Positions 3,140-42,823 of a DNA stretch of 64,000 nucleotides are shown here, one piece after another (within the stretch, counting starts at the first letter, position 1; each line of letters starts with the position of its first letter). The translations under genes and the position numbers were made by a program. The DNA is taken from assembly GCF_001894825.1 (NCBI RefSeq), contig NZ_BCWY01000017.1, positions 62,001 to 126,000 on the forward strand, in the 5' to 3' direction. The stretch comes from Rhodococcus jostii NBRC 16295 (GTDB lineage Bacteria; Actinomycetota; Actinomycetes; Mycobacteriales; Mycobacteriaceae). The notes below the pieces were generated by a model. The model ran no database searches, was not told the DNA's origin, and saw only the letters and a list, made by a program, of their open reading frames with translations.

Positions 3140-3231
3140 CGTCGAAGCCTAGGAACGACGGCCGGGTCGGCCCATCCTTTCGATCAGGCGGATTCTGACC
3201 GCCCACCACACCGTCCGGCTACCGTCGGGGT

Positions 3232-4743
3232 GTGCTGTTCTCGCAAATCGTCGCGACGTCACGAGAGGTGGGTGCCACCCGGTCGCGCAAGGTGAAGGTC
3301 GGGGCGCTCCGCGAGGTCCTCACCCGGCTGGAGCCGTCGGAGGTGGAACCGGTGGTCGCGTGGCTGTCCGGGGAGCTTCGGCAGGGCCGGATCGGAATCG
3401 GCTGGCGGACAGTCGCGGACATCCCGGCCACACCCGCCGACGACGCGACCGTCACCGTGTCCGAGGTCGACGGGACCATCTCCGCCGTCGCCGAGGTCTC
3501 CGGCTCCGGATCGGCCGCACGCCGGCGCGACCTGCTCGCGGAACTGTTCGCCCGCACCACCACCGACGAACGAGACTTCCTGCTGCGCCTGCTCACCGGC
3601 GACCTTCGCCAGGGCGCCCTCGAGGGGGTGATGACGGACGCAATCGCGGCGGCCGCCGATCTGCCGGTCGAGCCGGTGCGCCGGGCGTTCATGTTGTCGG
3701 GACGTCTGCCCGCGACCGCGGTCGCGGCGTTCGACGGCGGGGTCGACGCGCTCACCGCATTCCGGCTGGAGGTGGGCCGCCCGGTCCGGCCGATGCTCGC
3801 CTCCCCGGCCGAATCGCTCGCCGACGCGTGGACCGAACTGGGCGGCGACGTCAGCGTCGAATACAAACTCGACGGGGCGCGGATCCAGGTGCACCGCAAC
3901 GGCGACGAGGTGCGGATCTTCACCCGCACCCTGCGTGAGATCACCGGCAGCGTGCCGGAACTCGTCGAACTCGTGGTGAACCTGCCGTGCACGTCGGCGG
4001 TGTTCGACGGGGAGACGCTGGCCCTCACCGACAGTGGCCGGCCCCGCCCGTTCCAGGAGACGATGAGCCGCTTCGGCGCCGAATCGTCCCGCGAGCTGCT
4101 GCTGCACCCGTACTTCTTCGACTGCCTGCACCTCGACGGCGTCGACCTGCTGGACGCACCGCTGGAGGAGCGGTTGGCCGCCCTGGAACGGGTTGCCCCA
4201 CAACACCGCATCCCCGGGCTGATCCGACCTGACGCCGACGGCGCCGCAACGCATTTCGACAACGCGCTCGCCGCCGGTCACGAGGGCGTGATGGTCAAGT
4301 CGCTCACCGCACCGTATGCGGCGGGCCGGCGCGGCCGCGCGTGGCAGAAGGTGAAACCGGAGCACACCCTCGACCTGATCGTGCTCGGCGCCGAGTGGGG
4401 GTACGGGCGGCGCACCGGCTACCTGTCGAACCTGCACCTCGGGGCGCGCGACCCGGACGGCGGCGATCCGATCATGGTGGGCAAGACGTTCAAGGGTCTC
4501 ACCGACGCGCTGCTGCAGTGGCAGACGGACGAATTCCCGCGCCACGAACGCACGCGCGACGACCACACCGTGTACCTGCACCCCGACCTCGTCGTGGAGA
4601 TCGAACTCGACGGCGTCCAGGTGAGCTCCCGCTACCCGGGCGGGCTCGCGTTGCGGTTCGCGCGCGTCCTGCGGTACCGCCCCGACAAGACGGCCGCCGA
4701 CGCCGACACGATCGACGCCGTCCGGGCGCTGCTGCCGGGGTGA
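3232..4743 (+). CDS. ligB: ATP-dependent DNA ligase, LigB type
   Basis: A 503-residue ATP-dependent DNA ligase close in size and layout to mycobacterial LigB. It has an N-terminal DNA-binding region (about 1-190), then the nucleotidyltransferase core with the active-site lysine at residue 212 in KLDGAR. Motif III is FDGETLAL, motif IV is HEGVMVKS, motif V is AWQKVKPEHTLD, and an OB-fold ends the protein. It would seal nicks using ATP. It is extra to the essential NAD-dependent LigA and is not linked here to Ku or LigD genes, so a specialised repair role is inferred. The start is the GTG at 3232. Confidence 0.93.
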   Translation: MLFSQIVATSREVGATRSRKVKVGALREVLTRLEPSEVEPVVAWLSGELRQGRIGIGWRTVADIPATPADDATVTVSEVDGTISAVAEVSGSGSAARRRDLLAELFARTTTDERDFLLRLLTGDLRQGALEGVMTDAIAAAADLPVEPVRRAFMLSGRLPATAVAAFDGGVDALTAFRLEVGRPVRPMLASPAESLADAWTELGGDVSVEYKLDGARIQVHRNGDEVRIFTRTLREITGSVPELVELVVNLPCTSAVFDGETLALTDSGRPRPFQETMSRFGAESSRELLLHPYFFDCLHLDGVDLLDAPLEERLAALERVAPQHRIPGLIRPDADGAATHFDNALAAGHEGVMVKSLTAPYAAGRRGRAWQKVKPEHTLDLIVLGAEWGYGRRTGYLSNLHLGARDPDGGDPIMVGKTFKGLTDALLQWQTDEFPRHERTRDDHTVYLHPDLVVEIELDGVQVSSRYPGGLALRFARVLRYRPDKTAADADTIDAVRALLPG

Positions 4744-26940: not shown

Positions 26941-27278
26941 CTCTTTCCGTGCTGGTGGACGGGGTATTCGTGGCCAGCATTCCGACTTTCGGTCACCGCG
27001 GGTGAACGTTCCTGTGTTGAGCCAGGCCGCGAACGGAGACCGCGGGAAGAGCAGAACCCTCCGTGAGCCAACCCTCCGGCCGGTCGGGTGGCAGGAAGCG
27101 ACCTTGAGCCAGTCCCACGTTCTCCCACTGCACATTACGAACCCGTCGGTTCGAACACGAGACCGCCCCGCCATACAAGTCGGAAGCCGGGCCGGGGCAT
27201 CAATCAGGTATGTGACACTTCGCGATACATTCGGGCGACGGATACCGACCGACTAGTTTGTCTGGTTCGATTCGCCGC

Positions 27279-28416
27279 ATGGCGACAAGTGAACAGCCTG
27301 CAGGATTCTGGAGCTACGTCCACGCCGACAACGATGCGGAGCATGGACGGATTCTCCGACTGTGCGAGCGAATTGAGGCGGAGTACTCCCTCATCACAGG
27401 CAACGAAATCCACATGTTCGTGGACAGAGACGACATCTCATGGGGTGCCCGCCCGATGGCGAGACACCATCGACGATGCACTCGCCGCGACCACCTTCTT
27501 CATTCCGATCGTCACCGCCCGGTATCTCAAGAGGCCCGAGTGCAGGCGCGAACTGATTCAGTTCGCACAGCACGCCGAAAGGCGTGGGGTCAAGGAACTG
27601 TTGCTTCCGATCCTGTACACAGTGGTCCAGAACCTGAAGGAAGATTCCGACGATGAGGTGAACGCCATCATCGCCTCAACGCAGTACGAGGACTGGACCG
27701 CGCTTCGACTGCAAGACGAGCAGAGCCCGCTCTACCGAGCGGCCGTCAACAAGCTCGCCCTCCGACTCGCCGAAATCGCGGACACAATCTCCGAGCGGCC
27801 GGAAGTGCTGGCCGCCGCCGCTGACGACGCGACACTCACAGAGGAAGTCGGCGATGACGCACCCGGCCTTCTCGACGACATGGCCGAGGTTGAGGTGCTG
27901 TTTCCCACATGGACGAAGACCATCGAGACGCTGTCCTCGGAAATTACAGAAATCGGCGCCGTCTTCACCGACTATGCACCGAAGCTTGAAACCGCCGGAC
28001 GGTCCACAGGGGCCGCGGCCAAGTTGGCCGTCGCCCGACGACTGGCAAGCGAACTGGACCCAATGGCTGATCGCATCCTCGACACCGCCACGGAGTACGC
28101 CGATCAGGCGCTCCGGATGGATAGCGCGATCTCCGGAATCCTGCTCAACATCGCCGACGATTTCTCGAACGTGAGAGACGACAGCGAGTTCGAGACATTC
28201 ACCGCAGGAATTCGAGGCCTTCGGGATGGCGGCGAGAAGGCAGTCAAGGGCTTGGACGGCATGAACGATAGCGCCCAGCGCGTCGCTTCCATGAGTCGAG
28301 ATCTGAGGAAGCCTCTCGCGAAGATCTCACGGGCGCTCCAGCGCTTCATGGACGGCCAGGGCCTGTTCGATGACTGGGTTCGGCGGATCGACGACATCGA
28401 AGACGAGCGAGGATAG
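27279..28416 (+). pseudogene. TIR-domain protein gene, broken by a one-base frameshift
   Basis: The N-terminal TIR domain starts at ATG 27279 (PAGFWSYVHADNDAEHGRIL, then IHMFVDRDDISWGAR). It runs to about 27453 in one frame and continues from 27457 in the next frame with WRDTIDDALAATTFFIP, YLKRPECRREL (conserved glutamate region) and an all-helical C-terminal part of about 250 residues ending DDIEDERG. Taking one C out of the CGCCCG run at 27450-27455 would restore a protein of about 378 residues. TIR proteins often cleave NAD+ in phage defence. As it stands only a 70-residue stub or an in-frame internal start could be made. Confidence 0.8.
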
Positions 28417-32455: not shown

Positions 32456-34152
32456 GCAGCGTAGAGATGCTCGTCGAATACCATCTCCCACTGACTTCGC
32501 AGCGGGCCGATGTCGTCCTCGCCGGCACTCACTCGAGAACGGGTGAGCCGTCGTATGTGGTCGTCGAACTCAAACAGTGGTCAGCGGCACACCGCTACGA
32601 AGACAGCGTGGAACTCGTCGACGTCCCAGGCATACCTGGCGGGCCGAAGCTGCACCCCGTTGCTCAGGTGAAGGGCTACTGCGACTATCTCTCCGACTTC
32701 GCAAAAGCACTCGCCGATCAGCCCGATGCGCTCGCAGGAATCGCGTACCTTCACAACGCCACTGATCCCGGCGCAGTCGCCGATCTACGAGCCTTCCCTG
32801 TAAGTGCGACCGCACGACTGTATACAGCCGCGGACCGGGGCGACATGGTCACATTCCTCAAGACGCGTTTGTCCGCCACGACGGGCCACACGGCGGGCGA
32901 CACTCTTATCCGCTCCGCGGTTGCTCCCTCCCAACAACTCCTCAAAGTTGCAGCCGCCGAAGTCCGCGACCGACCACAGTTCCACCTACTCGGCGAGCAA
33001 CAGCTCGCGGTCGACCTGGTGCTGCATTCCGTCGAGCGGGCGCGCGCCAACGACGGCAAACGCATCATCATCGTCACAGGCGGGCCGGGCAGCGGCAAGA
33101 GTGTGATCGCATTGTCTCTCGTCGGCGAGCTCGCCCGACGCGGGCCGAACCGTCTTGCACGCAAACGGATCTCGATCATTCACGCAGACGCTCCGTAAGG
33201 TCGCGGGCGCACGTTCCCCGCGAGTGCAGAAGATGTTCAAGTACTTCAACCAGTTCATGACCGCAGAGCGCAACGGGCTCGACGTGCTCGTTCTCGACGA
33301 GGCACACCGCATCCGCGAAACGTCCGTTGACCGGTACACCAAGGCAGAACTGCGAACCGACCGTCCTCAGATCGACGAGCTGATCGCCGCCGCTCGCGTA
33401 CCGGTGTTTCTCCTGGATGAGCATCAGGTGGTTCGTCCCGGTGAAATGGGCTCGCTCGAACAGATCCAGCGTCACGCCACGACCATCGGCCTCGTGACAC
33501 AGCACGTACACCTCGGCGAACAGTTTCGCTGCGGTGTTAGTGAGGAGTACGTACTTGGGTCAAGCGCCTACTCGGGCTAGTCGAGGGTGGGCCGTACGAG
33601 TGGAGGGGTGATCCGCAGTTCGCGGTTCGCGTTGCCGATACACCGCAAGAACTAGAGCATCTCCTCTCGCAGCAGCAAGAGTGCGGCTACACCGCCCGAA
33701 TGACAGCCGGCTATTGCTGGCCGTGGAGCGACGCCAACAAGGACGGTTCGCTACCCGCAAATGTCCAGATCGGTAACTGGTCACGGCCCTGGAACAGTAA
33801 GAGCGACAGACGTGTCGGAGACGCACCATCAGCACCATTGTGGGCCACCGAGGACGGTGGCTTCGACCAGGTCGGATGCGTCTATACCGCCCAAGGATTT
33901 GAATACGACTGGAATGGCGTCATCCTCGGGCCCGATCTCGTGTGGCGCGACGGCCAGTTCACAACTATTCGCTCCGCTAATCGAGATCCCGATATGCGAA
34001 ATTCGAAAAGAGTCGGCGATGCCCGGTTCAACAAATTGGTGCGCAATGTTTACAAGGTGCTCCTTACCCGCGGGATGGTAGGCACTGTCATCTACTCGGC
34101 AGACGAAGAGACACGCGACGCTCTGCACGCGCTGGTGAACAAATCCAACTGA
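32455..34152 (+). pseudogene. DUF2075 nuclease-helicase gene, 3' fragment with two frameshifts
   Basis: The main body of the interrupted gene. A nuclease-like part comes first (LVEYHLPLTSQRADVVLAG, then VVVELKQWS, a D...ExK pattern). Walker A follows (TGGPGSGKSV), then Walker B (LVLDEAHRIRET) and helicase-like motifs (HLGEQFRCG, YTAQGFEYDWNGVILG, KVLLTRGMVGTVIY). The frame breaks at about 33143, where one extra G in GGGCC separates GELARRG from RTVLHANGSRSF. It breaks again near 33556, where one base is lost before VKRLLGLVEGGPYEW. With the IS insertion these changes make it a clear pseudogene. Confidence 0.88.
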
Positions 34153-35099
34153 GACACAGCACTACCAAAGACAACACTGCACACGAGCACGGCCCGACAG
34201 GCTTTCAACTGTTGCCGATATATCTAACACTAATTAATAGGTTCTGACACTGTCTGCCGGTGTGAATTGGTGAGGCCGCGGAATACTTGTTATGTCGGTG
34301 GTTGGGGTGTGCAAGGCGGCATGGGAGGGCCGGTGACCTTCTCGGCGCACCGGTTTCGGGTCACCGAATCTTTGACCGCCCGGACCTCGGCTCCTACCTG
34401 GGCAGGCCCGGATGGGAGTGTGCGGGAGCGACGCCGGAGAGGGTGGAGGCAGTGTATTGCCGGGTGTGGGGTTCGAGAGGACAACAGCGTCGTTGGCCAA
34501 TCAGGAAAAGATGTTGCGGGAGAGCGCTACTGGTGAGGTGCATCGGGGGTCTGCATGGATCACGGTTCGAGTCGGCGGGGCAGCGGGCGGAGTGGGCCGG
34601 ATGCTCGACCACGCGGCCGAGGGTCGGTAGACGGTGGTGCGGGTGGTGTGGCGAGATCGGTTGGCCCTGGTTCGCCGGTGGGCTGGTTCGGGGCTGCTTG
34701 TCGGTGGTCGGCGTTACAGTCGAGGTCTTACGAGACAGGGGTGACACATCGCTGGTGGGAGGGTTGATTGATGACGTCAGGGTGGTGCCGGCATCGTTGT
34801 CCTGCCGGTTCTCTCAGCTGCGGTCGATACATCATCACCACAGGCTTCGGGGCGACGCCGCCGCACGGTTGGGAATGGGGTCACCGGGGGGCATCGGCGG
34901 ACGATCTCTCCGGTGGAGAGCTGTCGGCCTTGCGGGTTGTGAGAGTTGATCCCGGCGATCACAGCACCTGGCCGCTCCACACCTCCGGATGCGACAGCAT
35001 CCGCAAAACCTTCGGAATTGGTTGCTGCGGCCGCGACTACTGCCGTCAGCTGGGCGAGACCCGGTTCGTTCGACTGCCCTTCGTTCCTGGTCGACCAGC
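34153..35099. other. Long GT-rich leader before the TnpB-like gene
   Basis: About 950 nt without a defensible protein gene. Frames that stay open here have poor codon bias, no ribosome site and no known motif. From 34290 to 34960 the plus strand is unusually rich in G and T. A small hairpin (CGGATGC at 34986-34992 with GCATCCG at 34997-35003) lies about 100 nt before the TnpB-like start. The string TTGTTATGTCGG at 34287-34298 also occurs at the outer end of the IS701 remnant (31103-31114). This may be the 5' part of a mobile element or encode an RNA. Confidence 0.45.
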
Positions 35100-36905
35100 A
35101 TGACCGGGCCGGGATCGACCGCGCCGCGGCAGTTCGCGTTCACCACCCGCGCCCACATGGCGGTCGATGACGCGACCGGGGAGCCGATCGGCCTCGACGA
35201 CGTCGACACCCGGGTGGGGTGGCTGCTCGACCTGATCACCGCGGCCGGCGCCGAGTTGGTGTCACGGCTGTGGCAGCCGGCGACGTTCGATGTCCTCGCC
35301 GCCGGCCGCGACCGCCAGGACCGCAGGCTGCCCGCACAGGGTCACGTTGCCGCGGCCCGCCTCGGCTGGACACCGATCTACCCGGACGGCGTCTATGTGC
35401 CGTCGCGGGTCACGCGGGTGGTGACGGCGCAGGTGATGGCCACCCTGCGGACCCTGGCATACCGGGACACCGCGATCACGGCACTCTCGGCCCGATTCGA
35501 CCCGGACACCGGGGTTGTGGCGCCGCCGACCGAACATAGCGACTATGTGCCGTCGGGCTTCCTCCGGGGCGTGCGACGTCAGCTCGCCGCACGCTCACGC
35601 AGGGACGGCGGGGCACCGGCCGTCCCGTTGCGGATCACCGAAATACAGGGACCACCCCGGATGGCGGCAATGGCCCGAATCTCCTCCGCCGACCGGCAAC
35701 TCGCGCAGATCACCATGGCAGACCGTGAGCTGGTGTTGACGGTGAAGCTGCCGACCTGCCCCGCCCCGGCGGGGCGGGCGCAGTGGCGCAGTGTCCGGCT
35801 CACCGCGACCATCCCCGAGCACCTGCACGGCCGGACGATCACCGACTGGCACCTACCGACCCTGGTCCTCGACCACCGGGGCCTGCTCTGGCGGTGCGCT
35901 GCCACCGAACTCGTCCCCGCAGCCGACCTGGAATCGACCACCATGGCGATGGGGGTCGATTGGTCCCCGACCACTCTGGGTGCCGCCGCCATCGTGGCAG
36001 AGGGTTCCGGCGGGTTGTCCTCGGATTACCGGGGCTGGACCTACGACGACCGCGGCCTCGGGATCAAACTGGCGCGCCTGCAAGCCGAGGGGCAGCTGCT
36101 GCACGCCAAGGCGGCCCGGTTGACGCAACTGTCCGCCACCGCCCCACCCGAGGTCCGCGCCGAGCTGGAGGCGAAGATCGCCGTCCTCGACGCCCACCGC
36201 GAGGCGGTAGGCGCCAAGAGAGGCAAGGTCAACCGGGAACTCGCGTTCCACTTCGCCCGCCAGGCCACCGACTACGCCACCGCCGCGGGCGCACAGGTGA
36301 TCGCGGTCGAGGATCTCACCACCCTCGAGACCCGCGGACACGGACGGGTCAACAACAACCGGGCCGCGCAGTCCGCCCGCCGCCAAGCGGTCGCCGCCCT
36401 GGCCCACACCGCCGCAGGGGTCGGAATCACAGTGGTCTCGGTGCCCGCCCGAGGATCCTCCGCACAATGTCCGGGCTGCGACGAACCCCTCTCCCGACCC
36501 GGCGGCTACCACACCGCGTGGTGTTCACGCTGCCGGGTCGGCGGCAACCGCGACCACGTCGCCGGGGTGAACCTGGCCAAACGCGCACTGCTCGGCAGAA
36601 ACAAGCCCACCCGTAGGCGGGGGCAGACGCCCGCGATCCGGGTCGCCGAACATGCACCGGTGCGCCGGTGCCGCGACAAGAACGGTCCCACCCCGAGCAG
36701 ACCACGGCACCGCCGGGTCCGCCACAGCCTCCCTGACGTGACACAGCGGTTGGGGGTGAATCCGAAACAGCATGTTCCTGCACCACAAGCGTCGGTGTGG
36801 GACACGGTCAAACCCACACCACCGCACGGTAATGCGGGTAGCCGTGACACACGTCTATCTCCCACGCCCGCCACACAAGTGGCAGACAGTATGAGATGTA
36901 CGTAG
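35100..36905 (+). CDS. TnpB-like RuvC nuclease (IS605 OrfB/zinc-ribbon superfamily)
   Basis: A 601-residue member of the large actinobacterial TnpB-like group. RuvC residues are seen in order: MGVDWSPTTLGAAAI (Asp), VIAVEDLTTLETRG (Glu) and GGNRDHVAGVNLAKRAL (Asp). Between the last two lies a zinc ribbon with CPGCDE and WCSRC. The N-terminal 280 residues form the recognition part. A basic 80-residue tail (TRRRGQTPAIRVAEH, RPRHRRVRHSL) follows the ribbon. TnpB proteins are RNA-guided DNA nucleases. No TnpA or serine recombinase lies nearby, so it is alone or its partner was lost. ATG at 35100 is chosen; a longer frame from 34989 lacks conserved residues. Confidence 0.85.
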   Translation: MTGPGSTAPRQFAFTTRAHMAVDDATGEPIGLDDVDTRVGWLLDLITAAGAELVSRLWQPATFDVLAAGRDRQDRRLPAQGHVAAARLGWTPIYPDGVYVPSRVTRVVTAQVMATLRTLAYRDTAITALSARFDPDTGVVAPPTEHSDYVPSGFLRGVRRQLAARSRRDGGAPAVPLRITEIQGPPRMAAMARISSADRQLAQITMADRELVLTVKLPTCPAPAGRAQWRSVRLTATIPEHLHGRTITDWHLPTLVLDHRGLLWRCAATELVPAADLESTTMAMGVDWSPTTLGAAAIVAEGSGGLSSDYRGWTYDDRGLGIKLARLQAEGQLLHAKAARLTQLSATAPPEVRAELEAKIAVLDAHREAVGAKRGKVNRELAFHFARQATDYATAAGAQVIAVEDLTTLETRGHGRVNNNRAAQSARRQAVAALAHTAAGVGITVVSVPARGSSAQCPGCDEPLSRPGGYHTAWCSRCRVGGNRDHVAGVNLAKRALLGRNKPTRRRGQTPAIRVAEHAPVRRCRDKNGPTPSRPRHRRVRHSLPDVTQRLGVNPKQHVPAPQASVWDTVKPTPPHGNAGSRDTRLSPTPATQVADSMRCT

Positions 36906-36963: not shown

Positions 36964-37824
36964 TTGACTGCATGGGCACTGGTCATATCGAAGGACTTCC
37001 CAGATCACTGGGACTTGGCGCAGAAAGATGGTTTTTGGGATACGCGGCCGCGCACCAAGATCGAACCGGCCGATGACATCTCCTTCTGGATGGCGGGTAC
37101 GGGTCTCATCGGATGCGCACGAGCGACCTCCGCAACGTTCGAATTGACCTCGTCCCATCCACCTGCTCACTGGCATGACGTGGCAACCGGAGGATACCGG
37201 TGGCGCTTTACATTGGAGTCGCAGAGCTCAGCACCGGTGCGACAGCCACGATGGAAGGAGATGGCCGCGGCTACCGGAATCACGGTGCCGGCGAGCAATG
37301 GTCGCATCGAGGTGAAGGACCCGAAGGGACGGGCGTATTTGCGCGGTTTGTTCGAAAAGGAGCCCGATTTCGATCAGGCTTTTTCGGACGGCCTCGCTGC
37401 CTATGCACCCGGTGACGATCTACGCAAACGTGCGCAGAGAGACATCGCAGTACGTCAAGGACAGGGGCAATTTCGCAACTCCCTGATTGATTCTTACGAC
37501 AGCACCTGTGCAGTTACTGGATCAACGGTTCTCGCCGTATTGGAGGCGGCACACATCGACCGCTACTACGGGGTCCACACAAATCACGTGACCAACGGCC
37601 TATTACTTCGCGCCGATATTCACACGCTGTTCGACCTCCAACGCATAACCATCGACCAGGACGTGCGGATACGGGTCGGACCTGACCTCATTCACACCGA
37701 GTACGGAAGTCACGAGGGCAAGCCCTTGAGGCTGCCCGAGAACCCGAGCCATCACCCGGACCGCGACGCTCTACGCCGACATTGGGAGAGTTGCGATTGG
37801 GCTAACATTTCGCAGAGTTCGTAG
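36964..37824 (+). CDS. HNH endonuclease with EVE/PUA-like N-terminus
   Basis: A 286-residue protein. The first 90 residues (TAWALVISKDFPDHWDLAQ, then ISFWMAGTGLIGCARA) look like an EVE/PUA-type domain, which in related nucleases reads modified bases. The C-terminal part is an HNH_2-type nuclease: CAVTGS, LEAAHIDRYYG (His), HVTNGLLLRADIHTLFDL (Asn and His). It may be a modification-dependent restriction enzyme; this is inference. The start appears to be TTG at 36964, since neither ATG just around it is in frame. GC content is lower than in the flanking chromosome. Confidence 0.8.
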   Translation: MTAWALVISKDFPDHWDLAQKDGFWDTRPRTKIEPADDISFWMAGTGLIGCARATSATFELTSSHPPAHWHDVATGGYRWRFTLESQSSAPVRQPRWKEMAAATGITVPASNGRIEVKDPKGRAYLRGLFEKEPDFDQAFSDGLAAYAPGDDLRKRAQRDIAVRQGQGQFRNSLIDSYDSTCAVTGSTVLAVLEAAHIDRYYGVHTNHVTNGLLLRADIHTLFDLQRITIDQDVRIRVGPDLIHTEYGSHEGKPLRLPENPSHHPDRDALRRHWESCDWANISQSS

Positions 37825-37965: not shown

Positions 37966-38901
37966 CTACCCCGCCGATCGGAACTTGTCGTAGCTCGCCT
38001 CAAGCAGTTCCCGGTCTGGCCGCTCGGCCCGCACAGATGGAATTACCATGAGCTTCTGACCATGTCGTTCCTTCAACCCATATTCGAGCATCGGTCCGTC
38101 AATCTCGATGAGCAGGTCCTGTCGAATTTCAACCACAAGGTCCGGCCGAATGCCCAGAATGCGGGCATCGAAGGCTGCATGGTGAATCTTGCACATTGCC
38201 AGACCATTTCGGACAGAAGCGATACCCCCTTCATCGGTATCTGGGACAATGTGCGCCGCGTCCAGAAGTTGGCTATGCCCGAGCGCGCACACCGCGCAGC
38301 GGGTGTCGTACGCGCGCATCACAGTGGACCGGAAGACAGGCTGATGCAATCGTCGCTTGGTCTCCGCCACGATGTATCGGCGGAGATGCTCCTCCACAGG
38401 CGATTCTGTCCGGTGCAAATCACGCGCGACTTCCGTTGCGACAACGAATTGGTGCTGCTCAGCTTCTTCAGCGACAATGGATACAGGGTAGATGGGCTGA
38501 AAGCGGCTCGGACCCACGCCATAGAACCAGATGAGCGGGGCCTTCAGCTCCATTGCCGCACGAAGACCCCGGTTGTCCATGTTCTCGGGATCCTTCCCCG
38601 ACCATTTGTAGCGAAGGAGCCCATCTGCACCGACAGTATCCTCGTACGGTCGTTCTTCACCAGCGCGACGGTACGTGGTGCTAATCGACAGTGCGGAGGA
38701 GAGCTGGCGTGGCTTGCGAATGCCGCGAGTGGGATCCATCAATCGAAACATCTCGCCGTCGATAGTGAAGTCGAGCAGTTCCTGTCTGCTGATCGAATCG
38801 AGACCGTCATTTGTGCGGACTGCTAGAAATCGCATCGCCTCGCTACGCAGACGTGTATCAAAATCCGGTGCGACGTCGGTACCCTGAGAAATATCCGCCA
38901 T
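37966..38901 (-). CDS. HNH restriction endonuclease-like protein
   Basis: A 311-residue protein with a DNA-recognition-type N-terminal region of about 170 residues (MRFLAVRTNDGLDSISRQELLDF, shortened; LIWFYGVGPSRFQPIYPV). A C-terminal HNH domain follows: CAVCALGHSQLLDAAHIVPD (first His), GIASVRNGLAMCKIHHAAFDA (Asn, HH) and PDLVVEIR. This order is common in stand-alone HNH restriction enzymes such as the PvuRts/ScoMcrA-like groups. The ATG at 38901 is set by GGAGGAAC 8 nt upstream. It faces the other HNH gene; no methyltransferase is present. Confidence 0.85.
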   Translation of the reverse strand: MADISQGTDVAPDFDTRLRSEAMRFLAVRTNDGLDSISRQELLDFTIDGEMFRLMDPTRGIRKPRQLSSALSISTTYRRAGEERPYEDTVGADGLLRYKWSGKDPENMDNRGLRAAMELKAPLIWFYGVGPSRFQPIYPVSIVAEEAEQHQFVVATEVARDLHRTESPVEEHLRRYIVAETKRRLHQPVFRSTVMRAYDTRCAVCALGHSQLLDAAHIVPDTDEGGIASVRNGLAMCKIHHAAFDARILGIRPDLVVEIRQDLLIEIDGPMLEYGLKERHGQKLMVIPSVRAERPDRELLEASYDKFRSAG

Positions 38902-39282
38902 TAACTGTTCCTCCACGTACTCAGCCTTCCCGCCCAACAGACCGACAGTAGCGGACTGTTAGGACAAGTATCGATCCTGACTAAACGCCGCGAGCGGATC
39001 TCGGCGATCGGGCGTCCATCACGCGAAACGCAGCGAGCGTCGGGATGGTTCCTTGTAATCACATAGAGGCGTATGAGGGTCGCGGGATGTCTGCGACTGA
39101 CTCCGCTTGAAGTGCTTAAAACAACTTGAACTCGACCTGCCGGATTCGCTGTCGCGTATCGCCGGTGTGCACCCAGCGAGGCCATCCCGATTCTCTCGGA
39201 CGCGTTCGACCGCTCAGATTCACGGGAAGTCGGATGGCATTCCGATATCTCTGCGAAGCATCCGAGTAGTAGTTTTGCGCCT
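38902..39282. other. Gap at the right edge of the island
   Basis: 381 nt holding the promoter of the HNH gene on the left and that of the CoA-binding protein on the right. No reading frame with a family match was seen and no repeat or attachment-like sequence was recognised. The sequence has lower GC than the genes to its right. Confidence 0.5.
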
Positions 39283-39814: not shown

Positions 39815-40504
39815 GTGGCAATCGACTACACCCGCCGCCCGTCCACTCCTGCAGTACCGCAGGGTGGGGTCAATCTGAGCAAGGTGACCTTGTCGAAGGC
39901 TGCGCCGTCGGTCAGCCTCACAAAGTCAGGTGAGCGGCAGGGTGCGATGCGGGTCAACCTCAACTGGTCGACGGGCGCGACACCGCAGTCGAAGAAGGCT
40001 GGCTTCTTTGCGAAGCTCGCGGCCGCCGCGGGCGGCAACAACGGCATCGACCTGGACCTCGGCTGCCTCTACGAACTCGCCGACGGGTCGAAGGGCGTGG
40101 TCCAGGCACTCGGCAACACGTTCGGTTCGCTCCAGGACCCGCCGTTCATCAAGCTCGACGCCGACGACCGCACCGGCACGGTCACCGGCGGCGAGAACAT
40201 GCATATCAACCTCGACCGACCGGAGATGTTCAAGCGCATCCTCATCTTCGCGATGATCTACGACGGTGCCCCCAACTGGGCGGCCGTGGATGGTGTTGTC
40301 ACCCTCTACCCCACCAGCGGTCCCGAGGTGGAGGTTCGACTCGACTCGTCGAACAGCTCCGCTCGCATCTGCGCCATCGCGATGCTGAACAACACCGGAC
40401 AGGGCATCACCGTCACGCGCGAGGTGAAGTACGTCGAAGGTAGCCAAGCAGATCTCGACAAGACCTACGGCTGGGGCATGAAGTGGGCGGCGGGCCGCAA
40501 GTAG
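39815..40504 (+). CDS. terD: TerD-family stress protein
   Basis: A 229-residue TerD-domain protein. The conserved block NGIDLDLGCLYELADGSKG (calcium-binding Asp residues, near 70-90) is followed by PPFIKLDADDRTGTVTGGENM, the second metal site, then INLDRPEMFKRILIFAMIYDGAPNW. TerD proteins act in tellurite, phage and general stress resistance and bind calcium. The start is the GTG at 39815. It is convergent with the TerD-nuclease fusion gene 267 nt away, so the two Ter-type genes form a small stress locus. Confidence 0.92.
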   Translation: MAIDYTRRPSTPAVPQGGVNLSKVTLSKAAPSVSLTKSGERQGAMRVNLNWSTGATPQSKKAGFFAKLAAAAGGNNGIDLDLGCLYELADGSKGVVQALGNTFGSLQDPPFIKLDADDRTGTVTGGENMHINLDRPEMFKRILIFAMIYDGAPNWAAVDGVVTLYPTSGPEVEVRLDSSNSSARICAIAMLNNTGQGITVTREVKYVEGSQADLDKTYGWGMKWAAGRK

Positions 40505-40771: not shown

Positions 40772-42823
40772 TTAGTCGCCTTCGGCTTCGGCGGTGTCGG
40801 TTCTCGGTTGTTCGGTCTGCTTCGGTGCGGCGGGCACCCATTCCCGTAGTTGTTGCACCACGGTCCCGTAGAAGGCTTCGGTCGACGACGTCACGCTGGT
40901 GATGAAACTCGCGGCGGTACCCGACCGCCGGCCGCCCATCGGGAAAGACTGCTCGAGGGAGAAGGAGACGATCTCCCCGGCCCGGCCGTCGGTGAGTACC
41001 TTCGGATCCGCTCGCACCGCATCGAGATGCTCGCACGCTTCGTTGCCTCGCTCGGAGTACACCGCTTCGACCTGTACATCCCCGGGTACGTCCTTGAGTT
41101 GCCTGAGCAGCCACGACAGCCGACGACCCGACGTTCCCTCGTTCGGCGCTTCCACGCTGGTGCGGCAGCGGATCTTGTTGGTCCGCACATCCGCGATCAC
41201 CCCCAAATCCCCGGCCGTCTCCGGGATCCGCAGCACCGCCTCGAACACCCCATCCGTCGCCAATCTTTCCGCTACCGCCGCATTCCGAGCAGCCGGGTCG
41301 CTGCCGTGGCGGCGGGGCAGGATGTGCTTGACGGTGACACCGAGCTCAGCGGTCAACCGCAACGCGAGATGACGTGAGAGCGACACCCAGGTGTCCGCCA
41401 CGGCGACAGCCTTCTGGTCCCCAGCGCGCAGGGTGCCTGCGGTGACCGCGTCGCGGACGGTCACCCAGTGCCGGCCCATGTCGACGAACTCGGCCGCCCC
41501 CGAGCGCGGATGATCGAGGTAGCGCAGGAACTCGGCGAGAATCCAGGCCTGCAGATCGTCGTCGATCCCGCCGTGCGAGAGCAACATCCGCGCCTCATGA
41601 CCCACCTCCGCCCACGACAAATGGCGAAGCGCGACCTTGGCGAGCTTGCGGCGGTCGACCTCCACCGGGAGCTCACCGGCGGAGGCGGGGACGTCGTTCG
41701 ACAGGCTGACCACCACGTCGTACTTATTCTTCCGCGCCACGTCGAGGTAGTTCTCGAGCTGCTCCTTCTTGAGCTTGCCGTTGCCGGTCTTGACTTCGAG
41801 CAGACCGGTCCACAACCGGCTGCCGCGGGAGACCTTCAGCACGGCGTCGGGGATCACCTTCGTCTCACCCCGCTCGTACGCCACCTCCACATATCCTTCG
41901 AAGGCACCGGCCGGGGCCCCCATCCGGGCGCACACCGCGCGTGCGAAGGGGCGCACCGCCTGCATGGTGGCGATCAACGCCGAGGTTGCCCTACGTTCCT
42001 GTTCCTCCCCGGTTCCGACGCCGATGACCGAGAACAACCGCGCCGGCTGCCAGGTGTCGTGTTCGGCGAGTACGAATTCGACTGGCTTCGACTTCTTCAC
42101 GATTCGTTTGGCGGTGCGGACGCCCCGGGTTTTCGCCTTCGCCGGTGCCGCCGGTGCCGCCGGTGCCGCCGGTGCGGCGGGTGTGGTGGGCAGTTCGGGC
42201 ACCAGCTGCGTGGCGTCGCCAGCGGAGCCGTGCGCCACCGCTTCGGCGGATTCGCCATGGTCGGATGAGTCATCAGGGGTGGCGGCGAGTTCGGGATCCG
42301 TGTCGTTATCGATGTCGACACCGAAATCCGTGGCCAAACCCGCCAGCCCGGACTCCCAGCCCTGCCCCACCGCCCGGACCTTCCACTCACCGTTGCGGCG
42401 GTACACCTCACCGAACACGAACGCCGACTCGGTTGTGGCATCGGCGGTGACGTACTCGGCAAGGGTGTGCCCGGCCCCGTCGACGACGCGTAGAGCGAGC
42501 TTCCCGAGATCCCCGAAGCTACCGGACCCGATGCTGCCGGCCAACGCCACGGTGTGCACGTCCTCCGGCACGGCGGACAGGTCGATTGCAATCCTCGCCT
42601 GCGCGCCTTCCTCGGTACCGCTCGTGCCCAGGAACCGGATCGACCCGTCCGACGACTCCGGTTGGTTGTAGAACACGAAATCCGCATCCGAGCGGACCTT
42701 CCCATCCGCGTTCAACAACAGTGCGGACGCATCGACCTCGACGTCCGACTCGGTCCACCCGAGCACCACGTCGACTTGCTCCACATCAGCAGGCAGCGAC
42801 AGATTCTGCCCTTTGGACAACAT
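40772..42823 (-). CDS. TerD domain fused to a PD-(D/E)XK nuclease-like protein
   Basis: A 683-residue two-part protein. Residues 1-185 form a TerD domain (MLSKGQNLSLP, VDVVLGW, DADFVFYNQPESSDGSIRF, IAIDLSAVPEDV, AFVFGEVYRRNGEWKVRAVGQG). An alanine/proline linker follows (PAAPAAPAAPAA). The central part contains KVIPDAVLKV, WTGLLEVKTGNGKL and KEQLENYLD, which is the D, ExK and Q/Y pattern of restriction-type nucleases. The remaining 270 residues are unassigned. The ATG at 42823 has GGTGGAG 6 nt upstream. Ter proteins have been linked to DNA-processing partners, and here the two are one chain. Activity is inferred. Confidence 0.85.
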   Translation of the reverse strand: MLSKGQNLSLPADVEQVDVVLGWTESDVEVDASALLLNADGKVRSDADFVFYNQPESSDGSIRFLGTSGTEEGAQARIAIDLSAVPEDVHTVALAGSIGSGSFGDLGKLALRVVDGAGHTLAEYVTADATTESAFVFGEVYRRNGEWKVRAVGQGWESGLAGLATDFGVDIDNDTDPELAATPDDSSDHGESAEAVAHGSAGDATQLVPELPTTPAAPAAPAAPAAPAKAKTRGVRTAKRIVKKSKPVEFVLAEHDTWQPARLFSVIGVGTGEEQERRATSALIATMQAVRPFARAVCARMGAPAGAFEGYVEVAYERGETKVIPDAVLKVSRGSRLWTGLLEVKTGNGKLKKEQLENYLDVARKNKYDVVVSLSNDVPASAGELPVEVDRRKLAKVALRHLSWAEVGHEARMLLSHGGIDDDLQAWILAEFLRYLDHPRSGAAEFVDMGRHWVTVRDAVTAGTLRAGDQKAVAVADTWVSLSRHLALRLTAELGVTVKHILPRRHGSDPAARNAAVAERLATDGVFEAVLRIPETAGDLGVIADVRTNKIRCRTSVEAPNEGTSGRRLSWLLRQLKDVPGDVQVEAVYSERGNEACEHLDAVRADPKVLTDGRAGEIVSFSLEQSFPMGGRRSGTAASFITSVTSSTEAFYGTVVQQLREWVPAAPKQTEQPRTDTAEAEGD

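What the first reader, a model, noticed from the sequence alone, without database searches (positions are those of the whole stretch)
40772..42823. TerD domain fused to a restriction-type nuclease core
One chain joins a TerD domain, an Ala/Pro linker and a region with PDAVLKV, LLEVKTG and a following Gln/Tyr helix, the PD-(D/E)XK layout. A second TerD gene faces it. This suggests a stress- or calcium-gated nuclease, possibly antiphage. About 270 C-terminal residues are unassigned.
Basis: partly seen in the sequence, partly recalled or inferred. Interest (0 to 1): 0.72.

Follow-up and report, generated by a model that had tools for sequence, protein, structure and literature searches.

The report
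TerD-linked nuclease family in actinobacteria
This gene makes a three-part protein found in many soil bacteria that joins a stress-response (TerD) module to a predicted DNA-cutting enzyme and a chaperone-like tail, which gives a direct way to ask what the poorly understood Ter stress system does to DNA.

Summary
Window 40772-42823 (minus) is one 683-aa ORF: TerD domain (Pfam E 1.7e-48), Ala/Pro linker, then a ~430-aa core belonging to an unnamed actinobacterial family. The core's first half is a PD-(D/E)XK nuclease: E276, D326, E343, K345, Q355 and Y359 are identical in 65 of 65 aligned sequences covering them (44 of 44 when rows found by a pattern containing two of them are dropped), and the model (pLDDT 90) matches restriction-endonuclease folds. 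The 'unassigned' tail folds confidently (pLDDT 93) and resembles YbjN and type III secretion chaperones (best Z 7.1), without detectable sequence homology. A tree of 68 cores separates 48 TerD-fused from 20 stand-alone members, but the split has weak support (0.62). Calcium gating is not supported: this TerD keeps 2 of 6 calcium-ligand side chains; none of 105 fused TerDs keeps all. The facing gene is a remote TerD relative, not a fixed partner. Context is mixed: CBASS-NucC on three Rhodococcus plasmids (two near-identical), terD genes in 3 of 18 other genomes, no constant neighbour. Most likely a Ter-coupled, metal-dependent DNase regulated by its flanking domains; trigger and target unproven. 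New variant of a known kind.

The parts
40772..42823 (-). Whole gene: TerD - linker - PD-(D/E)XK nuclease - YbjN/type III chaperone-like domain, 683 aa
   Evidence: ORF and translation; relatives
42311..42820 (-). TerD domain (residues 2-171) with degenerate calcium sites
   Evidence: Pfam E 1.7e-48 over residues 2-167; aligned to TerD chains 3ibz and 2kxt; 2 of 6 calcium-ligand side chains kept
42083..42310 (-). Ala/Pro-rich linker (residues 172-247), variable in length and sequence among relatives
   Evidence: alignment of 8 sequences; N-terminal flanks
41498..42082 (-). PD-(D/E)XK nuclease domain (residues 248-442)
   Evidence: model pLDDT 90.3; PDB second look AF1548 Z 8.9, FokI 7.1, Card1 7.0
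41747..41851 (-). Catalytic motif stretch: P325-D326 ... E343-x-K345 ... Q355 ... Y359 (E276 lies upstream in the first helix)
   Evidence: 65 of 65 covered rows identical at each position; 44 of 44 without rows found by pattern
40811..41497 (-). [quoted passage not shown] from residue ~510 on the order is helix-3 strands-helix-strands-helix
   Evidence: model pLDDT 92.8; YbjN 6vu7 Z 7.1, 2plg 6.8, AmyR 6.7, Spa15 6.6
39815..40504 (+). Convergent neighbour, 229 aa, remote TerD-superfamily protein; not a conserved partner
   Evidence: no Pfam match; hhalign to TerD E 6e-5; a paralogue lies in the ter cluster elsewhere in this genome

Best explanation
It is an accessory actinobacterial DNase coupled to the Ter stress system. 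Shown by computation: a TerD domain, a flexible linker, a PD-(D/E)XK nuclease with a complete and invariant catalytic set, and a C-terminal domain that resembles the YbjN/type III chaperone fold. Inferred: the nuclease cuts DNA with Mg2+ or Mn2+. The TerD arm acts as a protein-docking arm that brings the enzyme to other TerD proteins or the membrane-bound TerC complex, not as a calcium sensor. The C-terminal domain binds a peptide or partner protein (or the enzyme's own linker) and keeps the nuclease inactive or delivers it, so that stress or infection releases cutting of damaged or foreign DNA.
For: TerD domain passes Pfam's cut-off. E276, D326, E343, K345, Q355 and Y359 are invariant in 65 of 65 covered rows, 44 of 44 without pattern-found rows. 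The core model has pLDDT 90.3, and its residues ~4-193 align with restriction-fold nucleases. The C-terminal model has pLDDT 92.8, and 15 of its 20 best rows are YbjN-type proteins or type III chaperones. The tree of 68 cores keeps 48 fused and 20 stand-alone cores apart without mixing, though the branch between them has support 0.62. The fused gene adjoins terD genes in 3 of 18 loci, in two gene orders, against 0 of 16 stand-alone loci; TerD is the commonest Pfam family among 107 neighbours (7 genes, from those three loci) and TerC has 3. DR1245, a solved protein of the fold that the C-terminal domain resembles, is a partner of the SSB-like DdrB protein (PMC3575483, passages).
Against: No cleavage, binding or phenotype data. 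No Pfam, NCBIfam or PADLOC model matches the core beyond weak hits in 1-2 of 66 rows. The chaperone-like fold rests on Z of at most 7.1, with unrelated proteins 2a8e (6.6) and 1yb3 (6.2) at like scores, Foldseek E-values above 0.1, and no sequence-profile match to actinobacterial YbjN (probability 0.2%). Only a minority of loci adjoin ter genes, and there is no constant neighbour in 91 loci (largest family in 9). The gene is patchy: 12 of 28 genomes of the genus, counting fragments, and 19 of 121 of the family.
Confidence: 0.5

Rival explanations
1. Antiphage effector: the protein senses infection through TerD or the chaperone-like domain and degrades phage or host DNA, as a restriction or abortive-infection nuclease.
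For: Near a type II CBASS operon (cyclase, E1-E2, JAB, NucC) on plasmids pRZP3 and pRWAY02 (near-identical here) and pLP337, in two arrangements, nearest CBASS gene 1.0 or 2.5 kb away; near a SIR2 gene and a LeoA/BnzB-type pair on pLP337. In the window, two HNH_2 genes, a TnpB-like gene and a helicase fragment lie about 2-8 kb away. Patchy distribution. The same nuclease fold is used by CRISPR ancillary nucleases Card1/Can2.
Against: 5 PADLOC families, one gene each, among 107 neighbours in 18 loci; 100 families (number of distinct genes not given) among 120 control genes. The protein itself matches no PADLOC model (one of 66 rows, E 0.0056). CBASS genes were found beside the gene only in 3 of 11 plasmid records and in none of the 80 species-genome loci (by similarity to the pLP337 proteins). 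Several copies lie on contigs over 4 Mb, and Streptomyces, Nocardia/Rhodococcus and Geodermatophilaceae-type copies each form clades with support 0.999 or more, which fits long residence. None confirmed in viral contigs, none in phages.
Confidence: 0.28
2. Calcium-gated nuclease: calcium binding by TerD switches the nuclease.
For: Klebsiella TerD binds two calcium ions, as reported in PMC8779313 (passage). The D42-equivalent is kept in 105 of 105 fused TerDs.
Against: The window TerD keeps 2 of 6 ligand side chains (one of them as Glu for Asp) and lacks two residues of the loop. Ligand count in 105 fused TerDs, like-charged swaps allowed: 1 (3), 2 (51), 3 (31), 4 (20), never 5 or 6; 13 of 17 stand-alone TerDs keep 6.
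Confidence: 0.06
3. The nuclease fold is used for RNA or only for nucleic-acid binding, not DNA cleavage.
For: Card1/Can2-type relatives cut RNA as well as DNA (recalled, not from a call). The substrate cannot be read from sequence.
Against: The full catalytic set D, E, K, the helix-A Glu and the Gln/Tyr helix is invariant, which argues against a dead enzyme, though not against RNA.
Confidence: 0.14

Closest known systems
Card1 / Can2 CRISPR ancillary nucleases and Cap4
   Same: A regulatory domain fused to a PD-(D/E)XK nuclease (recalled); structural matches to the nuclease part (6wxw Z 7.0, 7bdv 5.6, 6vm6 4.7)
   Different: Those use CARF or SAVED domains that read cyclic nucleotides (recalled); here the partners are TerD and a chaperone-like domain
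FokI, BamHI, MspJI and AF1548 (restriction-endonuclease fold)
   Same: Fold of residues 248-442 and catalytic layout (AF1548 Z 8.9, FokI 7.1, BamHI 6.0, MspJI 6.2)
   Different: No significant sequence match to a PDB chain; no recognised DNA-recognition domain
YbjN, AmyR, DR1245 and class I type III secretion chaperones ('TY-chaperones' of PMC9503650)
   Same: Helix-three strands-helix-strands-helix order, and Z 5.0-7.1 in 15 of the first 20 rows, 11 different proteins; topology as described for DR1245 (PMC3575483, passages)
   Different: No sequence-profile match; this domain is about 230 aa with extra N-terminal helices and is fused to a nuclease
TerF-type TerD-vWA proteins and the ter operon
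   Same: TerD as one module of a multidomain protein; a TerD-vWA gene lies in this genome's ter cluster
   Different: Effector is a nuclease; calcium sites of TerD degenerate; gene usually outside ter gene clusters

Membership tests
PD-(D/E)XK nuclease superfamily | Catalytic D and E-x-K, conserved in relatives | tested here: met
   D326, E343, K345 identical in 65 of 65 covered rows; 44 of 44 without the 21 rows found by a pattern that holds E343 and K345
PD-(D/E)XK nuclease superfamily | Restriction-endonuclease fold | tested here: met
   Model pLDDT 90.3; 1y88 Z 8.9, rmsd 3.0, 112 aligned; many other restriction enzymes Z 5-7; Foldseek's best PDB E only 7.4e-3
PD-(D/E)XK nuclease superfamily | Significant match to a curated family of the superfamily | tested here: inconclusive
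   VRR_NUC in 2 and Tox-REase-7 in 1 of 66 rows, best E 0.0016, none for the window core at that limit; E 0.06-0.1 for the whole window protein
PD-(D/E)XK nuclease superfamily | Metal-dependent nucleic-acid cleavage | not testable with these tools
   needs an assay
TerD family | Pfam TerD match above cut-off | tested here: met
   E 1.7e-48, 165 bits against a cut-off of 25.3
TerD family | Calcium-binding side chains of Klebsiella TerD (D40, D42, D78, N79, D88, E89) | tested here: not met
   2 of 6 in the window protein; 0 of 105 fused TerDs with all six, 13 of 17 stand-alone TerDs with all six
YbjN / type III secretion chaperone superfamily (C-terminal domain) | Helix-three strands-helix-strands-helix topology | tested here: met
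   DSSP of the model against the order given for DR1245 in PMC3575483; compared by eye
YbjN / type III secretion chaperone superfamily (C-terminal domain) | Structural similarity clearly above background | tested here: inconclusive
   YbjN Z 7.1, 126 aligned, rmsd 3.9; 15 of the first 20 rows belong to this group, but all are under Z 8 and five other proteins lie among them at Z 5.4-6.6
YbjN / type III secretion chaperone superfamily (C-terminal domain) | Sequence-profile homology to YbjN | tested here: not met
   hhalign probability 0.2% to 20 actinobacterial YbjN sequences; no YbjN match in Pfam scan of 65 rows
Known antiphage defence system | Match to a defence-system protein model | tested here: not met
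   PADLOC: none for the window protein; 1 of 66 relatives at E 0.0056
Known antiphage defence system | Regular location among defence genes | tested here: inconclusive
   CBASS beside 3 plasmid copies, two near-identical; no enrichment in 18 other loci
Ter operon component | Encoded with terD/terC genes | tested here: inconclusive
   terD genes adjoin it in 3 of 18 fused loci (a fourth has one 2.5 kb away), 0 of 16 stand-alone loci; TerC in 3 of 107 neighbours

The most novel reading that the evidence does not exclude
A previously unnamed class of Ter-system effector: a TerD arm that has lost calcium binding and become a docking module, a PD-(D/E)XK DNase, and a type III chaperone-like clamp, joined perhaps once in actinobacterial history and kept as one unit, used to destroy DNA on stress or phage infection.
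Probability: 0.33. Interest if true: 0.75.

Novelty: new variant of a known kind. Interest (0 to 1): 0.52.

Why it matters
What Ter proteins do in the cell is still poorly known, although they are linked to tellurite, oxidative and phage stress. A single protein that joins TerD to a nuclease with an intact active site makes the suspected link between Ter and DNA processing directly testable with one gene and point mutants. The family is sizeable (536 confirmed stretches in the species-genome scan). No Pfam, NCBIfam or PADLOC model matches its core beyond weak hits, and 10 of the 11 plasmid copies are annotated only as 'TerD family protein', the eleventh not at all, so its nuclease half goes unseen in annotation.

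Tried and rejected
Calcium gating: tested with the published ligand positions and rejected as the likely mechanism. The facing TerD-like gene as a dedicated partner: rejected. It is found in 22 of 28 genomes of the genus, against 12 of 28, counting fragments, for the nuclease core. The two lie within 10 kb in only 2 of the 9 genomes with a full-length core (this one and G698); in the other 7 they are on different contigs or 1.1-3.9 Mb apart (coordinates). A first TerD alignment (A9) held one mis-cut row from the linker and was replaced by A10. Neighbour clustering on raw ORFs was swamped by antisense ORFs and replaced by gene-called neighbours.

Viral contigs (29 pattern matches, none confirmed) and phages gave no relative. 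Plasmids gave 11 records, only Rhodococcus and Streptomyces (the same 11 head the list). Presence outside Actinomycetota was not seen but was barely tested, since the species-genome scan shows only its best 80 of 536 and the genome searches stayed within the phylum. Foldseek alone gave no PDB or viral match at E under 0.001 for the core model, nor a PDB match for the C-terminal model (that model was not searched against the viral library). Literature: the Ter comparative-genomics paper (Anantharaman 2012) is not held and was seen only as a citation, so whether it already lists this fusion is not known. Searches listed nothing that I recognised as describing it, but searches listed only part of their hits (30 of 70, 30 of 45, 20 of 37). 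Papers seen: passages of PMC3710099, PMC10853773, PMC10250203, PMC3506569, PMC3575483, PMC9600765, PMC5069765 and PMC8779313 (in PMC10853773, PMC3506569 and PMC5069765 only reference-list matches); of PMC9503650 passages and one whole section (3.8); the rest as listings.

Controls and dropped rows: four TerDs from frameshifted fused genes (L093, L094, L104, L117) were taken out of the 21 'solo' TerDs, leaving 17; identical TerD sequences were removed before counting; swaps D/E (and D/E/N at two sites) count as kept. In one search, 5 of 105 fused TerDs do match a loose GDDE-type motif. In one search, two of 20 fused loci (L234, L239) had no core among the called genes, leaving 18. Gene calls there are by my own GC-position heuristic. 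The 120 control genes come from 20 stretches: 18 in genomes of the fused set (two of them the dropped loci's genomes; G060 and G682 have no control) and two in stand-alone genomes. I prepared 95 neighbours of stand-alone cores but did not scan them. In one search, two of 70 rows were left out (L062, L064, partial). The first-look cap in the genome searches was 5, 4 and 14 scored candidates per genome, so weak members may be missed. The species-genome loci were found by a pattern that holds W338, E343 and K345; their 21 rows in A5 were set aside, and the result stood.

Full report
What is there. The ORF at 40772-42823 (minus strand) is real and codes for 683 residues. Residues 2-167 match Pfam TerD at E 1.7e-48 and align over their length with the TerD structures 3ibz and 2kxt. 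An Ala/Pro-rich linker follows to about residue 247. No Pfam, NCBIfam or PADLOC model covers the rest significantly; the best weak matches to the core are restriction-fold families, Tox-REase-7 (E 0.06) and VRR_NUC (E 0.1).

The core is a family. Relatives on Rhodococcus plasmids are about 88% identical (three records) or 61-66% (two), and Streptomyces plasmid copies about 40%. Searches of whole genomes found the core in 35 of 298 genomes of the order, 21 of 396 of the phylum, a few of these by short weak matches, 19 of 121 of the family and 12 of 28 of the genus, fragments included. A scan of one genome per species confirmed 536 stretches found by one conserved pattern and kept the best 80; all 80 bear actinobacterial names. 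Of those 80, which are biased toward the query, 75 have TerD and core in one ORF, four have TerD in an overlapping frame, and one shows the core alone. The order and phylum searches also brought stand-alone cores, in ORFs of mostly 450-580 codons that begin close to the core itself.

Nuclease evidence. In a 66-row core alignment (window included; median pairwise identity 45%), E276, P325, D326, W338, E343, K345, Q355 and Y359 are identical in all 65 rows that cover them. Only 21 of 413 well-covered columns are fully invariant. Because 21 rows came from a scan whose pattern holds W338, E343 and K345, I repeated the count without them: 44 of 44 covered rows are identical at E276, D326, W338, E343, K345, Q355 and Y359. 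The AlphaFold2 model of the core has mean pLDDT 90.3. D326 sits just before the strand at core residues 80-86, E343 lies in and K345 just after the strand at 89-97, and Q355/Y359 sit on the helix at 106-118. The second look at PDB chains gives AF1548 Z 8.9, FokI 7.1, Card1 7.0, EcoT38I 6.5, MspJI 6.2 and BamHI 6.0 for about residues 4-193 of the core. Foldseek itself gave only MspJI E 7.4e-3 and, among viral models, a PD-(D/E)XK protein at E 2.4e-3.

C-terminal domain. Residues 443-671, modelled alone with 65 rows, give pLDDT 92.8. Fifteen of the first 20 rows of the PDB second look are YbjN-type or type III secretion chaperone entries, 11 different proteins (YbjN 7.1, 2plg 6.8, AmyR 6.7 and 6.5, Spa15 6.6 and 6.5, DR_1245 5.9, VecA, SycT, ExsC, SycN-YscB, CesT, SycH). 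The other five of the 20 are 2a8e (6.6), 1yb3 (6.2), 8q8o (6.1), 3cxj (5.8) and 3mqz (5.4), which I cannot place in that group. Further down, scores fall to about 4 and are mostly unrelated proteins. The same group appeared with the whole-core model. The strand and helix order fits that given for DR1245 (PMC3575483, passages). Against this, every Z is under 8, Foldseek E-values are above 0.1, profile comparison to 20 actinobacterial YbjN sequences gives probability 0.2%, and Pfam finds no YbjN. I call the fold likely and the homology unproven.

One fusion, perhaps. A FastTree tree of 68 cores separates 48 fused from 20 stand-alone members with no mixing, but the branch between them is short and has support 0.62. 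A single fusion or loss is the simplest reading, not a proven one. Within the fused set, the Streptomyces, Nocardia/Rhodococcus and Geodermatophilaceae-type copies form clades with support 0.999 or more; Cellulomonas and Sanguibacter copies do not form one clade.

TerD has lost the calcium sites. PMC8779313 (passage) gives the Klebsiella TerD ligands as residues 40, 41, 42, 78, 79, 89 and 29, 82, 84, 88. I mapped the six side-chain ligands by alignment (D40, D42, D78, N79, D88, E89; the numbering of the chain is my count on the alignment). The window TerD keeps two, one of them as Glu. Among 105 distinct fused TerDs the numbers kept are 1 in 3, 2 in 51, 3 in 31 and 4 in 20, never five or six. 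Among 17 stand-alone TerDs from the same loci, 13 keep all six. Calcium gating in its known form is unlikely.

Neighbour gene. The facing gene codes for 229 aa from 39815. Pfam does not recognise it; profile comparison with TerD gives E 6e-5, probability 65%, over 107 columns. A paralogue lies in the genome's ter cluster on contig 62, next to a terC-like gene and near a TerD-vWA gene (the terC call is my reading of the translation). It occurs in 22 of 28 genomes of the genus and is near the nuclease in only two of the nine with a full-length core.

Context. In three fused loci (L231, L232, L233) terD genes adjoin the nuclease gene, either downstream of it or upstream with a 33-base gap; no stand-alone locus of 16 has one. 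Around 18 fused loci the commonest Pfam family is TerD (7 of 107 genes, all in those three loci), then MFS (4) and TerC (3, tied with two others). PADLOC finds five families with one gene each in these 107 genes, against 100 families in 120 control genes, where many models may hit the same few genes and the tool does not give the number of genes. On the plasmids pRZP3 and pRWAY02 (near-identical here) and pLP337 the gene lies 1.0 or 2.5 kb from a type II CBASS operon with a NucC effector. On pLP337 a SIR2 gene and a LeoA/BnzB-type (dynamin-like, recalled) pair are also close; the pair recurs on pR8L1 and beside the Rhodococcus yunnanensis copy. None of the 80 species-genome loci shows these CBASS genes. 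Among 91 loci no neighbour is constant; the largest family is in 9. In the window itself, two HNH_2 genes, a TnpB-like gene and a fragment of a Schlafen-type helicase lie about 2-8 kb to the left.

Interpretation. Shown by computation: the domain layout, the invariant catalytic set, the nuclease fold, a confident C-terminal fold with a likely relationship, and loss of the calcium sites. Inferred: DNA as substrate, TerD as docking arm, the C-terminal domain as partner-binding regulator, and a role in stress-induced DNA cutting. The antiphage role is a serious rival, supported by plasmid context and patchiness but not by general context. It works like other effectors that join a sensing or docking domain to a PD-(D/E)XK nuclease; it matched no named defence system in the models tested.

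Novelty. The parts are known kinds; I found no description of this combination in the searches named under Tried and rejected, but the key 2012 Ter survey could not be read. I rate it a new variant of a known kind, interest 0.52.

Noticed in passing
genome contig C97:29139-29701 (L227 about 3140-3702): A second, truncated and frame-broken copy of the C-terminal third of the gene (residues ~495-682, 86-87% identical); split or partial copies also occur in relatives G701, G703, G696 and G778, as expected of an accessory gene under turnover.
   Followed up: partly
window 36964-37824 (+) and 37966-38937 (-): Two neighbouring HNH_2 endonuclease-type genes, tail to tail, both E about 7e-12, beside a TnpB-like gene (34989-36905, Cas12f1-like_TNB E 1e-7).
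   Followed up: no
window 32467-34152 (+): A Schlafen group 3 / DUF2075-like helicase split over several ORFs (Pfam SLFN-g3_helicase E 1.2e-5 on the first; the rest judged by eye); looks decayed.
   Followed up: no
window 27258-28416 (+): By eye, a TIR-like start in one frame that seems to continue in another; no Pfam match for the first piece.
   Followed up: no
plasmids pRZP3, pRWAY02, pLP337 (L009, L019, L010): Type II CBASS operon (cyclase, E1-E2, JAB, NucC; the record names the NucC gene DUF6602) near the TerD-nuclease gene.
   Followed up: partly
genome contig C62:23300-27830 (L225): The genome's ter cluster: TerD-vWA (TerF-like), TerD, a terC-like gene, a paralogue of the facing gene and a TerD fragment, followed by a double-GTPase (DO-GTPase2 E 9.3e-7).
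   Followed up: partly
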